From Bacilli bacterium (GTDB lineage: Bacteria; Bacillota_I; Bacilli_A; RFN20; DUOF01): DNA of 64,000 nucleotides. A program made the position numbers and the translations under genes. The notes under the pieces were generated by a model. The model made no database searches, had not been told where the DNA came from, and saw nothing but the letters and a program-made list of their open reading frames with translations. Shown here in pieces: positions 19,683 through 42,801 of this stretch (positions within the stretch are counted from its first letter, which is position 1; each line of letters opens with the position of its first letter). The stretch covers positions 496,001 through 560,000 of the forward strand of contig JAFWYE010000006.1 in assembly GCA_017517765.1 (NCBI GenBank), read 5' to 3'.

Positions 19683-19733
19683 CATTTCACCTCCGATATT
19701 AATTTTTTTATAATAAGCTTTAATTATCCAAAT

Positions 19734-19836
19734 AAAAACCCACACCTTACAAAGACGTGGGCAAAATAACACATTCGTATTTTCACCTCGGCAACCTTAT
19801 TAAGTTTACACCGTTGCTGTCTTTGGTAATTTAAGC
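19734..19836 (-). ncRNA. L10 leader (ribosomal protein autoregulatory 5' leader with terminator)
   Basis: The transcribed region before rplJ matches the L10 leader: conserved helices around GGTTGCCGAGGTGAAAATAC and a final hairpin CCCACGTC...GGTGTGGG (19739-19746 and 19754-19761) followed by a T-run. In this family, L10 (with L12) binds the leader and favours the terminator, reducing rplJ-rplL expression when the protein is in excess. A promoter lies immediately upstream (19843-19871). Confidence 0.8.
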
Positions 19837-19842
19837 ATAATT

Positions 19843-19871
19843 ATTGTAATGATTTTTTATTAACTTGTCAA
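19843..19871 (-). promoter_or_regulatory. rplJ-rplL promoter
   Basis: On the minus strand a perfect TTGACA and TACAAT are 17 bases apart, starting just after the rplA stop codon. Transcription would begin at about 19836, at the first bases of the L10 leader. Confidence 0.75.
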
Positions 19872-29550: not shown

Positions 29551-30864
29551 TTAATCAGTAAATACATCAGGATATAATTTTTTCAAATACTCATTAACAG
29601 CATCATCGTGAATTGTAATTGTATTCTTATATTGCTCTAAATAATGTGATACAGCACCAGTTGCCAAAGTTGATGAACCTGCTAATATTTCTATTACGTC
29701 ATTTTCATTTGCACTGTAATTATCTGCATTAATAACTTTAAATCTAACTATACTATAAGTATATGACCCACTATCACTTGTTTCTGTCAATAAAACATCA
29801 TTAGCGTCTACAGTAGCTCCTGCATTGGCACTAACTAAATAGTACCAATCGCCGATTTTAATTGCACGTTTTGTTTCATTTTCAGGATTGCTTAGATTTA
29901 GCAATCTGTTAGTAATAGTAGTACTTACAACTGAAGCGTTCTCACTATCAGAACTTATAACTTTATCAAAATTAAATTCCAAATCCTCAACCGCTTTAAT
30001 TTTTTCTTTTAGCCCTTCTTCCAAAGTGCGAGTATAGTTTGCTGTATACTCTGCCGCTAATTCTTGGCTATAGTCTTTAGCTCCATCAATAATTTTTTGA
30101 TATTCACCATTTACTGCTGCTTTTAATTCTTCTTTTAATCTATCTGCATAATCAGTAAAGTCAATATCCTCTATAGTGCTATTAGTAACCGCAGCAGCTA
30201 TTTCATCTCTTATGCCACGCATAAAATTTCTTACATTTATTTCTACTTTTTCTTCTTCACCATTATTATCTACAGTGTAATCATCATAATCAGATTCAAT
30301 TGACGAGCTTACTGTTAAATATTCTACATCTCTAATTTTCTTAGTATTAACAACATTTTTACTATCTTTTAAAGTTACATCTTTGATATATTTTTGTTTT
30401 AACAATGTAGATATTATTTCCACTTTAAATTTTCTATTTATAAGATCAGAATAATCATCTTTTGTAACGTTATATCCATCTTTTTTCATTGCTAGCACAA
30501 ATAATTCTTCATCAAATTTTCCATTTACTTGATATTCATCAGAATTCTTTAGTTCTTCTAATTTTTCTTCAACCATAGTATTATATTTTGTTTTCCATGG
30601 ATCTTTTTCAAGATCCAATACAGTTGAACCAACTATATCAACCAATTTATCAGCAGCAGCCTTACTTCCAACGTCATTAGCAATCATTGCATTGTAAATA
30701 TCTAATAAAGATAAATCGCTTGCATCATCTGTTAATCCAGAAAGAATGTCTGCATCTGTTATTTCTGCTACATTAGGTTTTCCATTATCACAAGAACATC
30801 CAGCAATACATAAAGTAGAAAGTAATATTGATAATGATAAAACTTTTAATCCATTTTTCTTCAT
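29551..30864 (-). CDS. Lipoprotein, diverged SurA/PrsA-like paralog (second of four)
   Basis: A 437-residue exported lipoprotein: lipobox LCIAGC, lipidated Cys23, mature start CSCDNG, the same pattern as its neighbours. It is similar to the last gene of the operon in the region VNGKFDEELFVLAMKKDGY and in an early LSLLDIYNAMIAND helix. The central 200 residues are helical and charged; no cysteine besides those at the N-terminus stands out. No clear catalytic motif was seen, so a chaperone-like rather than isomerase role is inferred. AAGGAGGGAG precedes the ATG. Confidence 0.7.
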   Translation of the reverse strand: MKKNGLKVLSLSILLSTLCIAGCSCDNGKPNVAEITDADILSGLTDDASDLSLLDIYNAMIANDVGSKAAADKLVDIVGSTVLDLEKDPWKTKYNTMVEEKLEELKNSDEYQVNGKFDEELFVLAMKKDGYNVTKDDYSDLINRKFKVEIISTLLKQKYIKDVTLKDSKNVVNTKKIRDVEYLTVSSSIESDYDDYTVDNNGEEEKVEINVRNFMRGIRDEIAAAVTNSTIEDIDFTDYADRLKEELKAAVNGEYQKIIDGAKDYSQELAAEYTANYTRTLEEGLKEKIKAVEDLEFNFDKVISSDSENASVVSTTITNRLLNLSNPENETKRAIKIGDWYYLVSANAGATVDANDVLLTETSDSGSYTYSIVRFKVINADNYSANENDVIEILAGSSTLATGAVSHYLEQYKNTITIHDDAVNEYLKKLYPDVFTD

Positions 30865-30879
30865 CTTCTAACTCCCTCC

Positions 30880-33609
30880 TTATGCACTCTTAACAACAAC
30901 GTATATTTTTATTGTTGTTCCACAATCTGTTTCTGTAATGGTTAATGTATTAACAGCGTCGGCATATGTTCCGCTTCTTCCATATTTTAATGAATCTATA
31001 ACATAACCTGTTTCAACCTCTAATTTACTTGTATCAATGTTAACTATATTTTCATCATCGTCAGCAGGATTATAAGTATATTCACTTTGAGCTTCTTGAG
31101 AATCGCTACTTATTTCCCCATCAAGTGGTTCTCCATTTTCATCTACAAATACATATTCGAAGTTAGTAGCCTTAGGCCTTACATAAACTGTAATCGTAAC
31201 TCCTTGAGAAACATTAATACCATCAAGAGTAAATGTGTATTCATCCTCATATGTTCCATTAGTGTCCGCATCAAATCCTAAAATATCAAATGCTTCAGAT
31301 GTGATTTTATCTTTTTCCACAGTATAAGTATTAGAAGCTCCTCCAGTAGAACTATAATCAGCATATTGCTCGTTAGTGTTAGCAACTAGTGATGAACTAG
31401 CCACTGCATCTGTACCTTCATACTTATAAGTGAATTTAAGTTGATATCTTCCTGACTCAGACTTAGTAACAATTTTAGCATAGAACAATGTGTGATTATA
31501 GATGCTAGAATTAGTTAAGTCAGCTTCTACAACTTCTGTTCCAGGTTGGAAATCTTTAGTTGTATACCAGCCTTGGAACTCATAACCTTCTTTTAGTTCC
31601 ATATCATCTTTAGTAGGTAAAGTTACAGGTTCACCAATATAAGCCCATTGAGCAAAACCGCCAGCAATATTGTCATCTTTCTTGAATTTTACAACATCAG
31701 TAGATGTAGTAATCTTTGTATATGACGTACCACTTGCTAACAAATCAGTATGGTAATAATAAGATAATTTAACTTGATATCCCTTACCATAAACATATCT
31801 ACACAAATTACCTGTAGATGTTGAGTTATTAATTGGGGCATATGCTTCTGAAGGAAGTACTACTGCACACTCATATGGTTTAATACCCATTTGTACAAGC
31901 TTTGTTTGCGAAACACTTAATTTATCAGCATGCTTATTGAAAGCTGTTAACAATTTATTATCATGAACTTTATTTAGATATTCTCTCTTTGAAGCGATAT
32001 ATGCTTCAATTGCTGTTTTAAGACCATTATTAGACCAAGATATATTACTATCTTCCATATAATCTTCTAACATCTTATAGCTTAATAAGCTTTCTTCTCC
32101 AACTTCTCCACCACTTCCAGCAGTAACGTAACTCTTTATATATCCTTCAATTTCAGATATTAACTTATTCTTAGATGCATTTGTATGCTCCACGTTAAAT
32201 GCAGGATCCTCTGCATAAGAAATGTCTTCATCTTCATCACTTGGATTAATAGTGAAATATTTTTTAGCCGCTTCTATATCTTGTAAAGCAGACACATCAA
32301 TAGTTAAGAAATGTAACCAAACATCATTACTACTACCTTTAGCAGCAACAAAGAATATTGGACTTCCTTTTTCATCAGTTAAAATCCACTTAGATGTGAA
32401 TGTATTTGCATCTGTATAAGTTCTAATTTCAACATAATTTTTAGCACCATCAGCAATAGCTTCGTCTTCAGTATTATAACCAATTACTGAAAGTCCTGGT
32501 TTATTAAATGCTCTGTTGAAAATTATTGATCTTGCATAAGCATTATAGTTTGAGTTTAGGTTATTCAAATTACTATCATATTCAGTTATACCACTGTTTG
32601 ATACATAGTCTTCACTACCAACATAACCAATATAATGGAAGTCTCCAGTACTAGTTTTATTTGCAACATCGCCTAATTTGTCAACCAAATCCATAGTCAC
32701 AAGATTCAAGCCATTTTTGTAATATTTAGCAATTTGGTCTTCTTGACCTTCGTAAACATCTTCATTTATAAAGCCAACACTCTTAAGTGTGTCATACTTA
32801 GTTGTTCTACCCCACTTATAGTAAGTAGTTTCATTTGCTTCTCCTGCGTTCTCAACAACCTTTTCTGTATATGCATCGAAAATGTATGTACCATATAAGA
32901 ACTCATCAACAAAACTTGTTGTAGTATCCATATAGTAAGCTCCACCACTAGCAGCGCTTCCTGTATCATCAGTCTCATGTTCAGCCACATATGAAAATCT
33001 ATCACCATTTTTAAATCTTGTGATAACATCAAAAATCTTTTCAGCCTCTGCTTGAGAAACATTTACGTTATTAGCAATTTTATTTCCATTTGTGTTATCG
33101 TCTAATTTAACCAAAACATGTCTAACAAGATATGGCAATCTATTTGCAATGTAATCATCATAAAATTCAGTTTTATGAGTTTCCCAATATTGCTCATTCA
33201 ATCTTGTTAATTTTTGCTCATAAATGATATTGGCCTTCATTTCATCAATAGACTTATATCCTTTATCTTCTAGCAATTTCTCTCTAGCATCTTTTACACT
33301 AATACCATTGCTTTGCGCATATGTCTCTACTTCTTCTTCAAAGGTTTCTTCAGCCATATCAGCAGCAGTTTGAATATTCTTAGTTGTTTCCATGCTTGAT
33401 TCAACAACTAATCTCAAAACTATAGAAAATGCTTCATTTGCGCCTGTACCTGTAGACAAAAGTTGATTATATAATTGTTCAGCAGTATACTTCTTATTTC
33501 CAACTTCTAAGACAGTATCTTTAACATTCTTGTCTCCATCGCCACAACCACCAAGTAGTGCAAGCGAAAGAGCAAGTAATGATACGAACGATAAATTCTT
33601 CTTATTCAC
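30880..33609 (-). CDS. PrsA-like parvulin foldase lipoprotein with C-terminal InlB-type repeat region (first of four)
   Basis: A 909-residue exported lipoprotein: lipobox ALLGGC, lipidated Cys22. The N-terminal chaperone region has VGNKKYTAEQLYNQL and a helical part; the parvulin domain begins RHVLVKLDD (163-171) and continues with FKNGDRFSYVAEHETDDTGSAASGG (199-223), close to PrsA. Unlike PrsA (about 300 residues) it is three times longer. After the middle region comes an InlB B-type repeat (EGYEFQGWYTTKDF...LFYAKI) and two related beta-rich repeats ending ITVYVRPK and IKIYVVVKSA. Translation starts at GTG 33609 after AGGGAGG. A promoter precedes it, so it leads the operon. Confidence 0.82.
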   Translation of the reverse strand: MNKKNLSFVSLLALSLALLGGCGDGDKNVKDTVLEVGNKKYTAEQLYNQLLSTGTGANEAFSIVLRLVVESSMETTKNIQTAADMAEETFEEEVETYAQSNGISVKDAREKLLEDKGYKSIDEMKANIIYEQKLTRLNEQYWETHKTEFYDDYIANRLPYLVRHVLVKLDDNTNGNKIANNVNVSQAEAEKIFDVITRFKNGDRFSYVAEHETDDTGSAASGGAYYMDTTTSFVDEFLYGTYIFDAYTEKVVENAGEANETTYYKWGRTTKYDTLKSVGFINEDVYEGQEDQIAKYYKNGLNLVTMDLVDKLGDVANKTSTGDFHYIGYVGSEDYVSNSGITEYDSNLNNLNSNYNAYARSIIFNRAFNKPGLSVIGYNTEDEAIADGAKNYVEIRTYTDANTFTSKWILTDEKGSPIFFVAAKGSSNDVWLHFLTIDVSALQDIEAAKKYFTINPSDEDEDISYAEDPAFNVEHTNASKNKLISEIEGYIKSYVTAGSGGEVGEESLLSYKMLEDYMEDSNISWSNNGLKTAIEAYIASKREYLNKVHDNKLLTAFNKHADKLSVSQTKLVQMGIKPYECAVVLPSEAYAPINNSTSTGNLCRYVYGKGYQVKLSYYYHTDLLASGTSYTKITTSTDVVKFKKDDNIAGGFAQWAYIGEPVTLPTKDDMELKEGYEFQGWYTTKDFQPGTEVVEADLTNSSIYNHTLFYAKIVTKSESGRYQLKFTYKYEGTDAVASSSLVANTNEQYADYSSTGGASNTYTVEKDKITSEAFDILGFDADTNGTYEDEYTFTLDGINVSQGVTITVYVRPKATNFEYVFVDENGEPLDGEISSDSQEAQSEYTYNPADDDENIVNIDTSKLEVETGYVIDSLKYGRSGTYADAVNTLTITETDCGTTIKIYVVVKSA

Positions 33610-34956: not shown

Positions 34957-35047
34957 ATTGGCAAGATTACAAATGCCACGGATAGTAAAACACTATCTCC
35001 ATTCCCAGAGAGAAGAATATTTATAAATATTCTCTCTCTTTTTTTTA
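34957..35047 (+). ncRNA. Structured RNA region of three hairpins, of unknown class, ending in a terminator
   Basis: After the YihY-like gene stop codon three hairpins follow: TGGCA/TGCCA (34959-34978), GATAGT/ACTATC (34981-34997) and a long stem based on the palindrome AATATTTATAAATATT, extended by AGAGAG/CTCTCT and ending in T-run to 35047, which is the terminator. It may be a structured 3' untranslated region or a small RNA. It matches no riboswitch or RNA class that I recognise. It lies directly before the jetA promoter. Confidence 0.45.
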
Positions 35048-35054
35048 TCATTTC

Positions 35055-35083
35055 TTGAGTTTGAAGCCAGTATCTTTTATAAT
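35055..35083 (+). promoter_or_regulatory. jetABC promoter
   Basis: TTGAGT (35055-35060) and a perfect TATAAT (35078-35083) have a 17-base spacer. The predicted transcript begins about 16 bases before the jetA start codon and includes its GGGAG ribosome binding site. Confidence 0.7.
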
Positions 35084-35105: not shown

Positions 35106-36524
35106 ATGAATTTATTTGAAGCAATACCAAAAAATCTCTTCTCTATTTTCAATTCAAAAAATAGAGAGACATACGTAAATGCTTTATTTGCCTTAAGACA
35201 AAGTTTTAAGCAAGAATTAACAATTGAAAAAGAAAATCTAATTCGCCAACTTGCCAACAATCTTCACCAAGATTTATTAAATATGGACATGGAAGAAGCA
35301 GAAGAATTAAATGATGGCAAAAAGTTATCTAGAGATGCAATGTCTATGTCTAGATTCATGGTTAAAAGATTAGCGGAAACAGGTTGGATTGAATTTGAGT
35401 ATGGAGTTGACACGTCATTCAAGGAATATATAGCGCTTGCGCCATACTCTATCAAAATCATTAACACACTATACGCGATAGCGCTTGAAGATGAGCAAGG
35501 ATACAACACTTATATGTATTCTATATACTCTAACTTAGTTCAAGCTGATACAGAAAAGAAAGACTTCATGTATGCCGCATTGCTTAACGCATATGATAGA
35601 ACTGAGGAATTAGAAAACGAACTTAAAACTCTATATCATAACATAAGAAGAAAATATAATAAGTTAGGTTTCTTAATGAGTGTAAATGATGTTTTAGTGG
35701 ATCACTTTGATGATTATCAAAGAAAAATCATTACACAAATCTATATGCCATTAAAAACAAAAGACTCGCTTAATCGTTTCAAAGGTAACGTAGTAGAAAT
35801 TTTAATGCGTTGGCTTAGAACACCTGAATGCATTGATTCTTTAGAAAAGCAAGCAATGACATATCAAGCATTCAATTCATTTGACGATGTTAAAGATGCT
35901 ATCATAACTAAAATATACTTCATTGTCGATAAATTAAACGAACTTGAAGAAATGGTAGAAAAAATAGATATAAAGAACACTGAATACGTTAGTGCTACGG
36001 CAGAAAAAATGAGAACTCTATTAACAAATGACAAGAGCATAAAAGCCAAAATGTCTAGACTTATGGAAACATTAAAAGATTCTAATGCAGATGATACTCA
36101 AGATAAGATTTTAGAGTACTTCTACCCTAATATTGCCCTTGAATCTAGTGCTTATATGGATGATACAAGTTTATTTGTAAGAAGCTATAGTATCCAAGAA
36201 TTTAGTAGCGAACCATTATACATAGATGATGTATATGATGTGAGCATTGATACACAAGCTACTAGCTTTATTGAAAATATGAATAATAAATATTCAAACA
36301 AAAATGTAATTAACTTTGTAGAAGAAAAACTAGCAAACAAAAATGAACTTGATTCTAGCAAGTTTGCTATAAGTAGCGATGAAGAGTTAATATTAACCAT
36401 TCATTCAATGCTAAAAGGATGGGATAAAAATGTATTCTACAAAATTGATTTACAAGAAGGTAACGTTGGAGTAAATAGTTATTCAATACCTAGAATGACT
36501 TACTATAGAAGGAGGAAAATCTAA
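35106..36524 (+). CDS. jetA: Wadjet/MksF-like JetA family protein (kleisin subunit)
   Basis: JetA is the kleisin-like subunit that links the SMC arms in Wadjet/MksBEF complexes. The 472-residue protein starts MNLFEAIPKNLFSIFNSKNRETYVNALFAL and has the helical, charged sequence of the JetA family formerly called DUF5716, including WIEFEYGVDTSFKEYIALAPYSIKII. No catalytic motif is present, as expected. GGGAG precedes ATG 35106; the longer reading begins in the -35 box and is rejected. The stop codon overlaps the start of jetB (TAATG). Identity is strongly supported by the order JetA-JetB-JetC. Confidence 0.85.
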   Translation: MNLFEAIPKNLFSIFNSKNRETYVNALFALRQSFKQELTIEKENLIRQLANNLHQDLLNMDMEEAEELNDGKKLSRDAMSMSRFMVKRLAETGWIEFEYGVDTSFKEYIALAPYSIKIINTLYAIALEDEQGYNTYMYSIYSNLVQADTEKKDFMYAALLNAYDRTEELENELKTLYHNIRRKYNKLGFLMSVNDVLVDHFDDYQRKIITQIYMPLKTKDSLNRFKGNVVEILMRWLRTPECIDSLEKQAMTYQAFNSFDDVKDAIITKIYFIVDKLNELEEMVEKIDIKNTEYVSATAEKMRTLLTNDKSIKAKMSRLMETLKDSNADDTQDKILEYFYPNIALESSAYMDDTSLFVRSYSIQEFSSEPLYIDDVYDVSIDTQATSFIENMNNKYSNKNVINFVEEKLANKNELDSSKFAISSDEELILTIHSMLKGWDKNVFYKIDLQEGNVGVNSYSIPRMTYYRRRKI

Positions 36525-37189
36525 TGTGGCTAGATGAATATAATGAATTAAATAATGGTGAAAGAGAAAGATTTGCCAAACTAGTTAACTATCTATTAAA
36601 TAAGACTTATTTAACTAGAGAAATATATGAAGGAAAACAAGTAATTGGTAAAATTAATGCCGATTATAGATTTATCGAAAGATATATCACTTTATTTGAA
36701 GGTTATCTTAATGTTATAAATTATACATTAACAATTGATGAAGAACTTGGTGTAGTTTATCTAAGTAACGAATATGGATATAATAAAATGCATTTAGATA
36801 AACTTACCACTCTAGTATTATTTACACTTAGAACTATTTATGATGAAGAAAAAGAGAAGAATGCCTCTAAGAGCATTGTTTATATCAGCACAGCTTCTCT
36901 TATCTATAAACTATTAGAATTAAAGATAGTTAGTAAAAAGCCTACTATGAAAGATATCGTAGATAGTTTAAGATTACTTGTTAATCAAAATATATTAACT
37001 AAAATTGAAGGTTCTATTGATGAGTCAAGTTGTCAATTAGCTATACTTCCAACAATATTGCTTGCTGTAAGCAATGAAAAAGTTGATGCTATCTATTCAA
37101 TGGTATTCCAAAATGAACCAAATACAGATGAAGCGCCTAAATATGCAAATCAAGAAATTGATGAAAGTGTATTTAGCAACTTAGACTAG
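36524..37189 (+). CDS. jetB: Wadjet/MksE-like JetB protein (DUF4194)
   Basis: JetB is the KITE-type subunit that binds the kleisin in Wadjet/MksBEF complexes. The 221-residue protein has winged-helix-like features: LTREIYEGKQVIGKINADYRFIERYITLFEGYL, then DKLTTLVLFTLRTIYDEEKEK, a TMKDIVDSLRLLVNQNILTKIEG segment, and ends in an acidic tail. Size is normal for DUF4194. A GGAGG site in the end of jetA precedes its ATG, and the two genes overlap by one base. Confidence 0.88.
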   Translation: MWLDEYNELNNGERERFAKLVNYLLNKTYLTREIYEGKQVIGKINADYRFIERYITLFEGYLNVINYTLTIDEELGVVYLSNEYGYNKMHLDKLTTLVLFTLRTIYDEEKEKNASKSIVYISTASLIYKLLELKIVSKKPTMKDIVDSLRLLVNQNILTKIEGSIDESSCQLAILPTILLAVSNEKVDAIYSMVFQNEPNTDEAPKYANQEIDESVFSNLD

Positions 37190-37201
37190 GAGGTAGATTA
37201 A

Positions 37202-40200
37202 ATGAAAATTTTAAAGAGAATAGTTTTAATAAACTGGCACTATTTCACATTTGAAACATTAGAATTAGATACAATAAACTTCTTAACTGGAAAAAATGGT
37301 GCAGGTAAGACAACTGTAATTGACGCAATCCAATTATTGATGCTTGGAGATACAACTGGTCACTTCTTTAACAAGAGTGCAAGTGATAAATCATCTAGAA
37401 CTTTAAAGGGTTACTTGAGATGCGAAATCGGTGATGATGATAATGGAGACATGATTTATCTTAGAAAAGGTAGATTCACTTCATATGTTGCTGGCGAGTT
37501 TTACGATGATGTTAATAATGAATTTACTACAGTTGGTGTGGCATTTGATAACTTTGAAGATGGTAGTATGGATTACAAGTTCTTCAGTTATGAAGGCCCT
37601 TTCCCTGAAAATAAATTTGTTGAAAATAAACTTCCTCTATCTATAAAAGAGCTAAAAGTTTATTTATTAGACCACTACTATAAGAACCAAATAAACTTCT
37701 TTGAAACAAATAGTTCTTATAGGGAATTCTTAAAAGAAAAATTTGGTAGAATTTCTAATTCATTCTTTGGATTATTTAAAAAAGCAATTCCTTTCTCTCC
37801 AATTTCTAATATTGAAACATTTATTACTGAATATGTATGTGATGTTAATTCAACTATCGATATTGGAGCAATGCAAGAAAATATTAGAAACTATAAAAAA
37901 CTAGAAAGTGATAGCGAAACTTTATCAAGTAGAGTTGCTGCTTTACAAGAAATTAATGAAGCATATTTGTCTTGGAAAAACCAAGAAGACTCAATCCTTT
38001 CTCAAAAATACGTATTTGCTAGAAGTGATCTACAAATTAAAAATAAAAAATTATCTGATGCTAAAGACACTTTAGAAGAAGGTAAAAATGATTTAGGACA
38101 ATACGCGTTACTTATCAACAAATGCGAACAAGAAATAAGAAATCACATAACTGATAAAGAAAAATTATTACAAGAAAAATATTCTTTAGACATTTATCAA
38201 AAACAAGCTGCTATTGAAGAGAAAAAAGCAGAAGTTGAAGAAGAAATAAGGAAGCTACAAGAAAGTGTAGAATCTATTGTAATGAATATGGATAACTATC
38301 AATTACAATGGATGGGAACAATTAACAAAGTATTGAATGCAGATGAAATTCATGAATCTATTAGCGAATTAAAATCTCTTGCAAAAGGATATTATAAGAG
38401 AATTGAAAACTTCAACACTAACATTGATTTAGAAAACTTAGATTTATCTTATTTCACTGAAATGCAAGAAAACATCAATAATCTTAAATCTGAGATTAGT
38501 GGTGTATTACATGTATTAAAAGAAACATTAAGACAAAACGAAAAAAGAAAAAATGAATTAAGTTCTAACTTAGGTAATATTGAACGTGGTGTTAAAAACT
38601 ATGATTCTAGATTATTAACACTTAAAAATATTCTTGAAACTAGATTAAAAGAAAAATATCATCAAAATATTTCTGTTGATATTTTAGCTGATTTAATTGA
38701 GGTTAAAGACCCTGAGTGGAAAAATGCTATAGAAGGTTATTTATATGGCCAAAAATTCTATTTATTTGTAGATCCAGCATATTTTGAGGCTGCTTTAAAA
38801 ATCTATGATGAAGTTAAATTCGAATATAACCTATTTGACTTTGGTATTGTAGATTGTGAAAAAGTTTTACAATCTAATCCTAATATGATTAAAGGATCTC
38901 TTGCTGAAGAAATTTCTACAACAAATGAATATGCTAGAGCTTATATTAACTCTTTAATTGGTGCATTAATTAAATGTGACAGAGTTGAAGATTTAAGAAA
39001 ATATCCTAGATCAATTACAAAAACAGGTATGCTATATCAAGGCTATGTAGCAAGACAAATTAATAAAGAAAAATGGAGAAATCACTTTATTGGTGTTAAT
39101 TCATTCTCTAATGAAAAAGGTGTTCTTGCTGAAGAAATCACTTCATTAGAATATAATAATGCTCAAATTTATAAAGCTATCATTACATTTGAAGATGCTA
39201 GCAAAGTAGAAGTATTAAATACTAACGAATTAAAGTCTATGTCTGAAATTAGTAAGGTTTATAAACAAATGCCTTCACTAGTTGCTAAAAAAGATGAATA
39301 TGATGCTGAATTATCTAAGCTTGATCTTCAATACGTAGAAGTATTAGATGCAAGAATTGACAAAATGCAAACAAAGATTAGCGAATATGAAGCTCAAAAA
39401 GAAGAATTATTAACTAGCCAAGTAAAACAAAGAAGTGAATTAGACAGACTAGAAGAATATGATATTCCTCTATTCCAAGAAGAAGTTAAACTAGCTAAAG
39501 AAGTTATTTATAATAACTTTGAAAAATCTTGGATTATGTCTACTGGCGAACCATTCTTTATGGAAGAGCTAGACAGAGTTAAAAATATTGCTTCATTGTT
39601 AAGCCAATACAAAGTTAAATTAGATCACATCGATAGTCAAAATAAAGGATTAAGAGATAAGCTTATCATGCTTAGAACTCAATATAATTCTAAATATCAT
39701 ATCTCATACAATCCAAATGCTAATACAAATGAATTATATGATGATGAGCTAGCAGAATTATCAGGAAATAAATTAATTGATTACCAAGAAAAGATTGCCA
39801 TTGCTAAGGCTAATGCAATTGGACAATTTAAAGATGACTTCCTAGCTAAGTTAAAAGCTAACTTTGACAATGTAAGAATGCAAATAGAAGCATTAAATGA
39901 TGCATTAAGTGGTTCTACATTTGGTACTGACTCATATCACTTCACAATGAATCCTAGAACTGAATATAAGCAATACTATGAAATGATTACTGATCCATTA
40001 TTAATGGAAGGATATAGTGTTACTGAAGATGCATTCCAAGAAAAGTATAAAGATGCAATTGAAGATCTATTCAGACAAATAACTGTATCTGAAGATGCAG
40101 ATGTTCATGCTAGAACCGAGATTGAAAGAAATATTGCTAAATATACTGACTATCGTACATATTTGAAGTTTGACCTTATAGTTACTGACTTAGAGGGTAG

Positions 40201-40561
40201 AAAGCAACACTTATCTAAGACATTATTAAAGAAATCAGGAGGAGAAACTCAAACTCCATTCTATATTTCTGTTCTTGCTTCATTTGCTCAATTATATAGA
40301 ACAAATGATACAAGCAATACTAAGAATCAAACAATTCGTCTTATCGTATTTGATGAGGCCTTCTCTAAGATGGATAGCGAAAGAATTCAAGAGTCTGTTA
40401 AGTTGCTTAGAAACTATGGACTACAAGCAATTCTTAGTGCTCCACCTGAAAAGATGTCTGATATTGTACCTTTAGTAGATAATACTATTTGTATTGTACG
40501 TGATGACCAAAAATCTTATATAAGAAATTATGGCAACGATAAGCATAAAATCGTAGCTTAA
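37202..40561 (+). CDS. jetC: Wadjet/MksB-like JetC, SMC-like ATPase
   Basis: JetC is the SMC-like ATPase that extrudes DNA loops and, in Wadjet, detects small circular DNA. The 1119-residue protein has an N-terminal Walker A GKNGAGKTT (30-38), long coiled coils (about 240-480 and 680-930) around a hinge (DLIEVKDPEWKNAIEGYLYG), and a C-terminal signature SGGETQ (1012-1017) with Walker B LIVFDEAFSKMD (DE at 1051-1052). All key motifs are intact. AGGAGG precedes the ATG. It ends in a strong terminator and no JetD (TOPRIM nuclease) gene follows. Confidence 0.93.
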   Translation: MKILKRIVLINWHYFTFETLELDTINFLTGKNGAGKTTVIDAIQLLMLGDTTGHFFNKSASDKSSRTLKGYLRCEIGDDDNGDMIYLRKGRFTSYVAGEFYDDVNNEFTTVGVAFDNFEDGSMDYKFFSYEGPFPENKFVENKLPLSIKELKVYLLDHYYKNQINFFETNSSYREFLKEKFGRISNSFFGLFKKAIPFSPISNIETFITEYVCDVNSTIDIGAMQENIRNYKKLESDSETLSSRVAALQEINEAYLSWKNQEDSILSQKYVFARSDLQIKNKKLSDAKDTLEEGKNDLGQYALLINKCEQEIRNHITDKEKLLQEKYSLDIYQKQAAIEEKKAEVEEEIRKLQESVESIVMNMDNYQLQWMGTINKVLNADEIHESISELKSLAKGYYKRIENFNTNIDLENLDLSYFTEMQENINNLKSEISGVLHVLKETLRQNEKRKNELSSNLGNIERGVKNYDSRLLTLKNILETRLKEKYHQNISVDILADLIEVKDPEWKNAIEGYLYGQKFYLFVDPAYFEAALKIYDEVKFEYNLFDFGIVDCEKVLQSNPNMIKGSLAEEISTTNEYARAYINSLIGALIKCDRVEDLRKYPRSITKTGMLYQGYVARQINKEKWRNHFIGVNSFSNEKGVLAEEITSLEYNNAQIYKAIITFEDASKVEVLNTNELKSMSEISKVYKQMPSLVAKKDEYDAELSKLDLQYVEVLDARIDKMQTKISEYEAQKEELLTSQVKQRSELDRLEEYDIPLFQEEVKLAKEVIYNNFEKSWIMSTGEPFFMEELDRVKNIASLLSQYKVKLDHIDSQNKGLRDKLIMLRTQYNSKYHISYNPNANTNELYDDELAELSGNKLIDYQEKIAIAKANAIGQFKDDFLAKLKANFDNVRMQIEALNDALSGSTFGTDSYHFTMNPRTEYKQYYEMITDPLLMEGYSVTEDAFQEKYKDAIEDLFRQITVSEDADVHARTEIERNIAKYTDYRTYLKFDLIVTDLEGRKQHLSKTLLKKSGGETQTPFYISVLASFAQLYRTNDTSNTKNQTIRLIVFDEAFSKMDSERIQESVKLLRNYGLQAILSAPPEKMSDIVPLVDNTICIVRDDQKSYIRNYGNDKHKIVA

Positions 40562-40573
40562 TAACATAAAAAG

Positions 40574-40604
40574 GATAACTAGAAAAAATTAGTTATCTTT
40601 TTTT
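40574..40604 (+). terminator. Intrinsic terminator of jetABC
   Basis: GATAACTA (40574-40581) pairs with TAGTTATC (40590-40597), followed by seven T residues. It lies about 13 bases after the jetC stop codon and its T-run runs into the helD promoter. Confidence 0.85.
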
Positions 40605-40605
40605 G

Positions 40606-40634
40606 TTGACAAGCATATTTTTATCATATATACT
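40606..40634 (+). promoter_or_regulatory. helD promoter
   Basis: A perfect TTGACA (40606-40611) and TATACT (40629-40634) with a 17-base spacer, beginning right after the jetC terminator. Transcription would start near 40641, giving a leader of about 79 bases before helD. Confidence 0.8.
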
Positions 40635-40640
40635 TATTTG

Positions 40641-40719
40641 CGTTAATAAATCGGCTATATAAAAGATAACCTCCTGATGGAGGCCTAGGGGGACTTTAGG
40701 CCTAAAAGGGGGTTTTTTA
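40641..40719 (+). promoter_or_regulatory. Structured helD leader (possible attenuator or translational switch)
   Basis: Hairpin CCTCC-TGAT-GGAGG (40670-40683) shares three bases with a second hairpin AGGCCTA/TAGGCCT (40681-40687 and 40697-40703), so the two are mutually exclusive. An alternative pairs AACCTCC (40668-40674) with GGGGGTT (40708-40714), which includes the ribosome binding region just before the ATG and is followed by a T-run. The AACCTCC segment also resembles the anti-Shine-Dalgarno sequence. No known class was recognised. Confidence 0.5.
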
Positions 40720-42801
40720 ATGCTAAAAGAAGAAATTTTATACTTAGAAAGGGTCAATAATCTAATTGATAAACAGCTAGAACATGATAAGCTGCAATTA
40801 GAACATTACATGGAAGAAATAAAAATTATTCCAGATGATGATGAAAACAAATTCTCAATGACAGAAAAATGGATTGACCTATACCTTGCAAGTATTGCTT
40901 CACTAAAAAGACACAAAGATAAACCATACTTTGCTAGAATTGATTTCAAAGATGAAACAATGAAAAATAAAGATCAACTTTATATTGGCAAGCTATCAAT
41001 GATTGATGAAAACAATGATTGCGTAGTAATCGACTGGAGAACACCTATTGCCAACTTATATTACGATAGCAGCCTAGGTGATACTTCATACAAAACAAAT
41101 GATGGCAGTTACATCCATGGTAACCTATCATTGAAAAGAGTTTACACAATAGAAAACTCTAAGTTACTTGATTATATAGATGTTCATTCCACTAGTGACG
41201 ATGAACTATTAAAGCCATTCCTTGGAGTAAATGCAGATAATAAAATCAAAAACATAGTCTCATCTATTCAAAAAGAGCAAAACGAAATAATCCGTGACTC
41301 ACTATATAAAAATATTGTAGTGCAAGGAGTTGCAGGTAGTGGAAAAACAACAGTAATGCTTCATAGAATTGCCTACCTAGCATACAACTACCAAGACCTA
41401 TTTACTACAAATCAATATCTAGTACTAAGCCCTAACAACTTATTCACAGATTATATCTCAAGCATTCTCCCAGATTTAGAAGTTGATAAAGTAAAACAAG
41501 CAACTTTTGAAAACATCTTTAAAGAATATTTAAACTTCAAATTCAATCCTACATTCCTAACTAGAAATAAGTCTAATGATTATGACTATGTTAGTGAATA
41601 CAAATCAAATAAAGAGATGATAAATAAAATTGATAACTACTACAAAAAGTATGAATCAAAAATAATAGATAGAGATATCACTTATAAAGATATAGTAATA
41701 ATATCTAAAGAAGATGTTAGAAATACCTTTACAAAAAACAGTAATGATCCATTTGAAATTAAGATAAAAAAATTAATTAATGATCTATATTCATTAACCC
41801 AAGAAGATAGTTTTAGACTAATAGCAAATATAAATAAGCAAATTAATAATCTTACTATTCAAAACCCAAGTAAGAGAAAAGAATATTTAGACCTTGGATA
41901 TGAATCTAAACAACTATTTATAAAAGGTATGAAAGAGGTAATAAAGAATCATTTCAAAGTCTTTGATAACAATATATATAAACTATACGTAGAATTTATA
42001 TCAGACTTAGATAATAACTCAGTAAAAGAGGCAACACTAGCTAATATAGACAAAAAGAAATTTGATTACGATGATCTAGCTCTTCTAATATACTTAAAAT
42101 ACCTAATAAATGGTTCAAAGAATTATGATTCATATATCTCAATAAGCATAGATGAAGCTCAAGACTTAGGATACACACACTTTGTAGCCCTTAAGAAACT
42201 ATTCAGAAGAGCTTACTTTACAATAGTGGGTGACTTATCTCAATCAATATATGCATATCGAGGAATTAGACATTGGGACGACATAAATAACTTATTTAGC
42301 AATGATATCCTATATCTGTCTAAATCATACCGTAACACAATAGAAATTATGGAATACGCTAACAAAATATTGGAATACTTACAAGTAAGCAAAGCAACAC
42401 CAGTTATAAGACATGGCGATGAAGTAAATGAAATAAAATATTCTAATAAAGCAAAAACAATACTAGAAAGAATAAATAAATATAAAGAGAACCACAATTC
42501 TATAGCTATAATATGTAAAAGCAAAGACGAAGTAGATATACTATATAAAGAATTATCAAAGAGCATAAACCTAACTAAGTTAGATGAAACTACACTTAAA
42601 TATGAAGGTGGGTTATGCATCCTTCCTATATATTTATCTAAAGGATTAGAATTTGATTGTGTAATACTAACGGATGTAGATGATACAAATTACAATAAAG
42701 ATAACATATTAGATATGAAGCTACTATATGTAGGAATAACAAGAGCACTTCATAACCTTGATATCCTTTATAAAGAGTCTAAACAAGAATTATATAAATA
42801 A
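40720..42801 (+). CDS. helD: RNA polymerase recycling ATPase HelD (UvrD-like superfamily 1)
   Basis: HelD removes stalled or non-productive RNA polymerase from DNA using ATP. The 693-residue protein has the family pattern YFARIDF....DQLYIGKLSMID...CVVIDWRTPIANLYYDS (about 70-115), then the P-loop GVAGSGKTTVMLHRIAYLAY (203-222), SIDEAQDLGY (Walker B), GDLSQSIYAYRGI (motif III) and the C-terminal motifs LSKGLEFDCVILTD and YVGITRALHNLDILYK. The N-terminal segment has the short coiled coil that enters the polymerase secondary channel. It is somewhat short (usually about 700-770). It is alone on its transcript, downstream of jetABC. Confidence 0.92.
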   Translation: MLKEEILYLERVNNLIDKQLEHDKLQLEHYMEEIKIIPDDDENKFSMTEKWIDLYLASIASLKRHKDKPYFARIDFKDETMKNKDQLYIGKLSMIDENNDCVVIDWRTPIANLYYDSSLGDTSYKTNDGSYIHGNLSLKRVYTIENSKLLDYIDVHSTSDDELLKPFLGVNADNKIKNIVSSIQKEQNEIIRDSLYKNIVVQGVAGSGKTTVMLHRIAYLAYNYQDLFTTNQYLVLSPNNLFTDYISSILPDLEVDKVKQATFENIFKEYLNFKFNPTFLTRNKSNDYDYVSEYKSNKEMINKIDNYYKKYESKIIDRDITYKDIVIISKEDVRNTFTKNSNDPFEIKIKKLINDLYSLTQEDSFRLIANINKQINNLTIQNPSKRKEYLDLGYESKQLFIKGMKEVIKNHFKVFDNNIYKLYVEFISDLDNNSVKEATLANIDKKKFDYDDLALLIYLKYLINGSKNYDSYISISIDEAQDLGYTHFVALKKLFRRAYFTIVGDLSQSIYAYRGIRHWDDINNLFSNDILYLSKSYRNTIEIMEYANKILEYLQVSKATPVIRHGDEVNEIKYSNKAKTILERINKYKENHNSIAIICKSKDEVDILYKELSKSINLTKLDETTLKYEGGLCILPIYLSKGLEFDCVILTDVDDTNYNKDNILDMKLLYVGITRALHNLDILYKESKQELYK

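What the first reader, a model, noticed from the sequence alone, without database searches (positions are those of the whole stretch)
35106..40561. JetABC (Wadjet/MksBEF-like) operon without the JetD nuclease
JetA, JetB and an intact JetC SMC-like ATPase form one operon with its own promoter and terminator, but no JetD (TOPRIM nuclease) gene is present on either side. In established Wadjet systems JetD cleaves plasmids; the three-subunit form resembles MksBEF condensins that organise chromosomes. This could be a nuclease-free Wadjet-derived complex, a condensin, or one relying on an unlinked nuclease.
Basis: partly seen in the sequence, partly recalled or inferred. Interest (0 to 1): 0.75.

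Follow-up and report, generated by a model that had tools for sequence, protein, structure and literature searches.

The report
Nuclease-free Wadjet as only condensin
Gut-type Bacilli with small genomes carry an intact DNA-looping motor derived from an anti-plasmid defence system that has lost its DNA-cutting subunit; no normal chromosome-organising motor (Smc-ScpAB) was found in their genomes, which suggests the defence machine was converted, more than once, into their chromosome organiser.

Summary
jetA (35106-36524), jetB (36524-37189) and jetC (37202-40561) are intact, type I Wadjet genes with a complete SMC ATPase, in the middle of an 862-kb contig. JetD is absent next to them, from the whole genome and from all four sampled genomes of the family. 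The gap is not a local deletion. Across 196 genomes of the order, 82 JetC proteins form one fully supported clade with no JetD beside any of them; it spans seven families, often keeps the same neighbours (upstream of glgC in 53 of 79 loci) and is under strong purifying selection (dN/dS about 0.003-0.10). No canonical Smc or ScpA was found in the order. In the wider class, 78 of 159 genomes lack both Smc and ScpA; 36 of these carry JetABC, and 35 of the 36 have a copy without JetD. The JetD-less copies are not one clade (AU test, p about 1e-43), so the nuclease was lost repeatedly. Best reading: a Wadjet-derived, nuclease-free condensin (MksBEF-like) that is the only SMC-kleisin complex detected in these bacteria. 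Condensin function is inferred, not shown. The main weakness is that many genomes of one family have neither Smc nor JetABC.

The parts
35008..35048 (+). hairpin plus T run: likely terminator of the upstream gene, separating it from jetABC
   Evidence: fold -13.2 kcal/mol; sequence
35055..35083 (+). candidate sigma-70-type promoter of jetABC (TTGAGT-17-TATAAT)
   Evidence: region not enriched over shuffles, so plausible only
35106..36524 (+). jetA (MukF-like kleisin), 472 aa
   Evidence: PADLOC JetA1 1.2e-124; Pfam PF18982 4.3e-84
36524..37189 (+). jetB (MukE/KITE-like), 221 aa; carries the 7-residue insert seen in the order's JetD-less clade
   Evidence: PADLOC JetB1 1.5e-64; PF13835 5.9e-22
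37202..40561 (+). jetC (SMC/MukB-like ATPase), 1119 aa: head, long coiled coil, hinge, coiled coil, head
   Evidence: PADLOC JetC1 1158 bits; AlphaFold layout, mean pLDDT 84.7; Foldseek to Wadjet JetC and MukB
37289..37315 (+). JetC Walker A (GKNGAGKTT, residues 30-38)
   Evidence: invariant residues G30, N32, G35, K36 in alignment of 20
38669..39100 (+). JetC hinge region (about residues 490-633), between the two coiled-coil halves
   Evidence: AlphaFold secondary structure
40235..40252 (+). JetC ABC signature motif (SGGETQ, residues 1012-1017)
   Evidence: invariant S1012, G1013, E1015, Q1017
40340..40363 (+). JetC Walker B (LIVFDEAF, D1051 E1052)
   Evidence: invariant D1051, E1052; PF13558 2.9e-25
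40570..40606 (+). AT-rich hairpin plus T run: likely intrinsic terminator of jetABC; the next gene (HelD-like) has its own promoter
   Evidence: fold -10.4 kcal/mol; sequence; promoter 40606-40634

Best explanation
JetABC here is a Wadjet type I-derived SMC complex that has permanently lost the JetD nuclease and works as the cell's condensin. JetC dimers are bridged by the JetA kleisin and JetB. They load on DNA, extrude loops with ATP, and compact and help separate the chromosome. Without JetD, full extrusion of a circle no longer leads to cutting. In this order, and separately in other Bacilli families, it stands in place of Smc-ScpAB. Shown: intact genes and ATPase motifs, no JetD, no detectable Smc or ScpA, vertical inheritance at a fixed locus, strong purifying selection, several independent JetD losses. 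Inferred: loop extrusion (from E. coli Wadjet and MukBEF work) and the condensin role (from P. aeruginosa MksBEF).
For: No JetD in the genome or the family, with positive controls: 16 genomes of the same order score above the cut-off and 14 in the class sample. One 82-member JetC clade, 0 with JetD, laid out by family. No ScpA over cut-off in 196 genomes. The few weak SMC-hinge hits in the order have E 2.6e-7 to 4.5e-4 and lie at jet loci, against E below 1e-20 for real Smc elsewhere in the class. In the class, 78 of 159 genomes lack both Smc and ScpA; 36 of them have JetC, 35 with a JetD-less copy, against 7 JetD-less copies in 81 Smc-positive genomes (Fisher p 2e-7, not corrected for kinship). 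Fixed neighbourhood: glgC downstream in 53 of 79 loci versus 0 of 30 Wadjet-side loci. dN/dS 0.003-0.10. One-clade models for the JetD-less copies rejected. Precedents: P. [quoted passage not shown]
Against: No functional data. In one large family (f4), 87 of 141 genomes have no JetA (my count), and none of the order has Smc, so life without any SMC complex seems possible there. Families f12 and f19 also show neither. The JetD-less form also coexists with Smc in family f14, so it is not strictly a replacement. The suggested JetB marker of JetD binding could not separate the groups.
Confidence: 0.62

Rival explanations
1. It is still an anti-plasmid or anti-phage system that works without JetD: JetABC extrudes and sequesters or silences small circles, or hands them to an unlinked nuclease.
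For: Sequence class is Wadjet type I. In C. glutamicum, MksB affects plasmid copy number and not chromosome folding (PMC7083940). An unlinked, unrelated nuclease cannot be excluded by profile search.
Against: All four subunits are needed for plasmid restriction in B. subtilis (PMC10586767). Defence systems are patchy and mobile; this one is vertical, nearly always single-copy and in a fixed core-gene neighbourhood. At least 10 genomes carry a separate full JetABCD or its remnant besides it.
Confidence: 0.2
2. It is an SMC complex for another chromosomal job (repair, replication-fork or terminus handling), not the general condensin.
For: Loss in most of family f4 without any visible substitute suggests a dispensable role.
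Against: Co-distribution with loss of Smc-ScpAB in the class points to the general role.
Confidence: 0.13
3. It is a decaying remnant of a Wadjet system that lost its nuclease.
For: JetD is missing; a truly decayed second Wadjet exists in one relative (L115).
Against: Three intact ORFs with catalytic motifs across seven families and dN/dS 0.003-0.10.
Confidence: 0.02
4. Artefact: JetD or Smc-ScpAB is missed because of assembly gaps or divergence.
For: All genomes in this order are draft or MAG-like; the window's genome shows 6.9% contamination.
Against: Window is mid-contig; the same absence in 196 genomes, 142 of them at least 90% complete and at most 5% contaminated; JetD, Smc and ScpA are found readily in other genomes of the class with the same profiles.
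Confidence: 0.03

Closest known systems
Wadjet type I (JetABCD / MksBEFG / EptABCD)
   Same: JetA, JetB and JetC are full-length type I homologues in the same gene order; SMC fold closest to Wadjet and MukB
   Different: JetD nuclease absent; vertically inherited at a fixed locus; no Smc-ScpAB in the host order
MksBEF of Pseudomonas aeruginosa
   Different: P. aeruginosa also has Smc-ScpAB, and MksBEF is described as typically occurring together with SMC or MukBEF (PMC7485682); here no Smc or ScpA was found
MukBEF of enterobacteria
   Same: an SMC-kleisin-KITE complex that replaced Smc-ScpAB in a whole lineage
   Different: distant sequence (Pfam MukB N-terminal hit only 1e-6); different phylum; shorter arms
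Smc-ScpAB
   Same: proposed role
   Different: not the same family: no ScpA, no canonical hinge in the order

Membership tests
Wadjet type I defence system | JetA, JetB, JetC type I homologues in one operon | tested here: met
Wadjet type I defence system | JetD (CAP-TOPRIM nuclease) present | tested here: not met
   0 in genome and family; none in window
Wadjet type I defence system | patchy, horizontally moving distribution | tested here: not met
   82-member clade follows families; glgC synteny 53/79
Wadjet type I defence system | blocks plasmid transformation | not testable with these tools
   needs an assay
MksBEF-type condensin | SMC ATPase with intact Walker A, signature, Walker B | tested here: met
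MksBEF-type condensin | head-coil-hinge-coil-head SMC architecture | tested here: met
   AlphaFold layout, Foldseek to Wadjet/MukBEF; global TM-scores are low (about 0.3-0.36 over the query), as expected for long flexible arms
MksBEF-type condensin | kleisin and KITE partners, no nuclease | tested here: met
MksBEF-type condensin | organises or segregates the chromosome | not testable with these tools
   needs depletion and Hi-C
Smc-ScpAB | canonical SMC hinge and ScpA in genome | tested here: not met

The most novel reading that the evidence does not exclude
Anti-plasmid Wadjet systems have been turned into chromosome condensins several times in the class Bacilli by dropping JetD, each time in lineages that have lost Smc-ScpAB. 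Whole orders of gut bacteria now depend on a tamed defence machine to fold their chromosomes. Families such as f14, with Smc, JetABCD and JetD-less JetABC side by side, would be intermediate stages.
Probability: 0.45. Interest if true: 0.82.

Novelty: new variant of a known kind. Interest (0 to 1): 0.62.

Why it matters
How condensins and SMC-based immunity relate by descent is an open question, and the review consulted only speculates that MksBEF came from JetABCD by nuclease loss (PMC10586767). Here are several independent cases, with JetD-bearing sisters and an apparent loss of Smc-ScpAB in the same class, so the conversion can be studied step by step. It also warns that defence-system finders may count these loci as (incomplete) Wadjet immunity when they are probably housekeeping genes.

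Tried and rejected
JetB N-terminus as a JetD-binding marker: PMC10586767 reports JetD contacts at an IFDR motif at the JetB N-terminus. The N-termini of JetD-bearing f14 JetBs look like those of the JetD-less clade, so the test was inconclusive. SMC-hinge hits in the order: they lie at jet loci, so not Smc. Four weak JetD_C hits in the order (E 1e-4 to 8e-4, below cut-off) sit in short frames of 177-190 aa and were not counted as JetD; their identity was not checked. Exact sister of the 82-member clade: FastTree and IQ-TREE disagree, so not claimed. The GTDB name of the order was not established: the nearest named record is only 'uncultured Bacilli bacterium'. RF39, RFN20 or ML615J-28 is a guess from the small genomes and the class.

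Full report
What is there. The window holds three intact, tightly packed genes: jetA 35106-36524, jetB 36524-37189 and jetC 37202-40561. PADLOC type I models cover each over its full length and Pfam agrees. JetC has an invariant Walker A, SGGE signature and Walker B in an alignment of 20 relatives. AlphaFold gives the layout head, long coil, hinge, long coil, head (mean pLDDT 84.7, pTM 0.45), and Foldseek ranks Wadjet JetC and MukB first. The stretch lies inside an 862-kb contig. The upstream gene ends with a hairpin and T run, a plausible promoter precedes jetA, and an AT-rich hairpin plus T run follows jetC. The next gene, HelD-like, has its own promoter. These signals are consistent with one operon but were not enriched over shuffles.

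JetD is absent. PF09983 finds none in the genome and none in the four sampled genomes of the family. The same search finds JetD above the cut-off in 16 genomes of the order and 14 of the class sample, so the test works in these bacteria. A JetD profile from the order's own JetDs finds nothing in the window.

The three-gene form is old and vertical. JetA is present in 107 of 196 genomes of the order: in all four of this family, and by my count in 53 of 55 genomes outside the large family f4 and in 54 of 141 inside it. I fetched 120 regions and typed their genes. In a tree of 107 JetC proteins, 82 form one clade with full support. None has JetD beside it, and its branches follow the families f1, f2, f3, f4, f5, f6 and f8. 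The other 25 JetC are patchy, nearly all in f4; 13 of them are followed directly by JetD. At least ten genomes carry both kinds. The clade often sits in a stable neighbourhood: the ADP-glucose pyrophosphorylase-type gene glgC lies downstream in 53 of 79 loci, all in f3, f4 and f5, but in none of 30 loci of the other kind (Pfam check of neighbours). In family f1 the upstream genes are shared by three of four members. dN/dS between pairs is 0.003-0.10 for all three genes.

The usual condensin is missing. ScpA has no match over the cut-off in 196 genomes of the order. SMC-hinge hits there are few and weak (E 2.6e-7 to 4.5e-4) and lie at jet loci, as comparison with the fetched regions shows. Elsewhere in the class the same profiles find ScpA in 80 and a true hinge in 79 of 159 genomes; 81 genomes have one or the other. 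Of the 78 without either, 36 carry JetC, and in 35 of these at least one copy lacks JetD; the exception, G317, has JetABCD. Of the 81 Smc-positive genomes, 10 have JetC and 7 of those have a JetD-less copy. Fisher p is 2e-7, but genomes are related, so this number overstates the evidence.

The loss of JetD was repeated. JetD-less copies occur in this order, in f16, in f26+f27+f28, in f10, in f14 and in several f4 subclades, interspersed with JetD-bearing copies. Holding all JetD-less copies together as one clade is rejected (p-AU 1.4e-43), as is holding together only those of Smc-negative lineages (p-AU 1.8e-128). Long branches are present, so exact sister relations are unsure, but at least eight changes of state are forced by well-supported branches. 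Loss is more likely than gain because JetD is part of type I systems across phyla (general knowledge; PMC10586767).

How it most likely works. Wadjet JetABC is a loop-extrusion motor, and JetD is thought to cut when extrusion of a small circle is complete (review PMC10586767). Remove JetD and the motor remains. The same review states that P. [quoted passage not shown] I infer the same for this complex. I have not shown any activity.

What speaks against. Most of family f4 has neither Smc nor JetABC, and families f12 and f19 also show none, so these bacteria may live without any SMC complex, or have one I cannot see. In f14 the JetD-less form coexists with Smc. A JetB marker for JetD binding was inconclusive. 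Genome incompleteness alone is unlikely to explain the pattern (142 of 196 genomes of the order are at least 90% complete and at most 5% contaminated), but closed genomes would help.

Known versus new. Nuclease-free MksBEF is known, and bacteria with only a distant MksBEF homologue have been noted (B. longum, T. muris; PMC10197239). MksBEF is described as typically occurring together with SMC or MukBEF (PMC7485682). I found no report, in the open library searched, of a type I Wadjet core as the only SMC complex of a whole order, or of repeated JetD loss alongside Smc-ScpAB loss. The library lacks most subscription papers. I file this as a new variant of a known kind.

Noticed in passing
window 40664-40720: Strong hairpin (-26.2 kcal/mol) ending in GGGGGTTTTTT right before the ATG of a HelD-like RNA polymerase recycling gene (40720-42801), downstream of a near-consensus promoter; looks like an attenuator leader.
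   Followed up: partly
family f4 of the order (e.g. G006, G013, G023); G199 (f12); G206 (f19): High-completeness genomes with no detectable SMC hinge, ScpA, JetA or JetC: possibly bacteria without any SMC-kleisin complex.
   Followed up: partly
L212-L221 (family f14): Genomes with Smc-ScpAB, a full JetABCD and a separate JetD-less JetABC, a possible intermediate stage.
   Followed up: partly
L115 (G030:C32): Second Wadjet locus in decay (broken jetA and jetD) in a genome whose JetD-less jetABC (L114) is intact.
   Followed up: partly
L063-L174, jetB: JetB of the order's JetD-less clade has a shared 7-residue insert absent from JetD-linked JetB.
   Followed up: partly
L117, L121, L123, L124, L125, L137 and L116, L153, L180: f4 genomes in which only a Wadjet-side JetABC without JetD was found, instead of the ancestral JetD-less copy, as if the ancestral copy was swapped.
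   Followed up: partly
window 30880-33609 (-) and 29551-30864 (-): Two large lipoproteins next to each other; the first has a borderline PpiC-type rotamase match and a Listeria-Bacteroides repeat match and is shared with two relatives in family f1.
   Followed up: no
window 19724-19844 (-): L10 ribosomal leader (RF00557), the only Rfam hit in the window.
   Followed up: no
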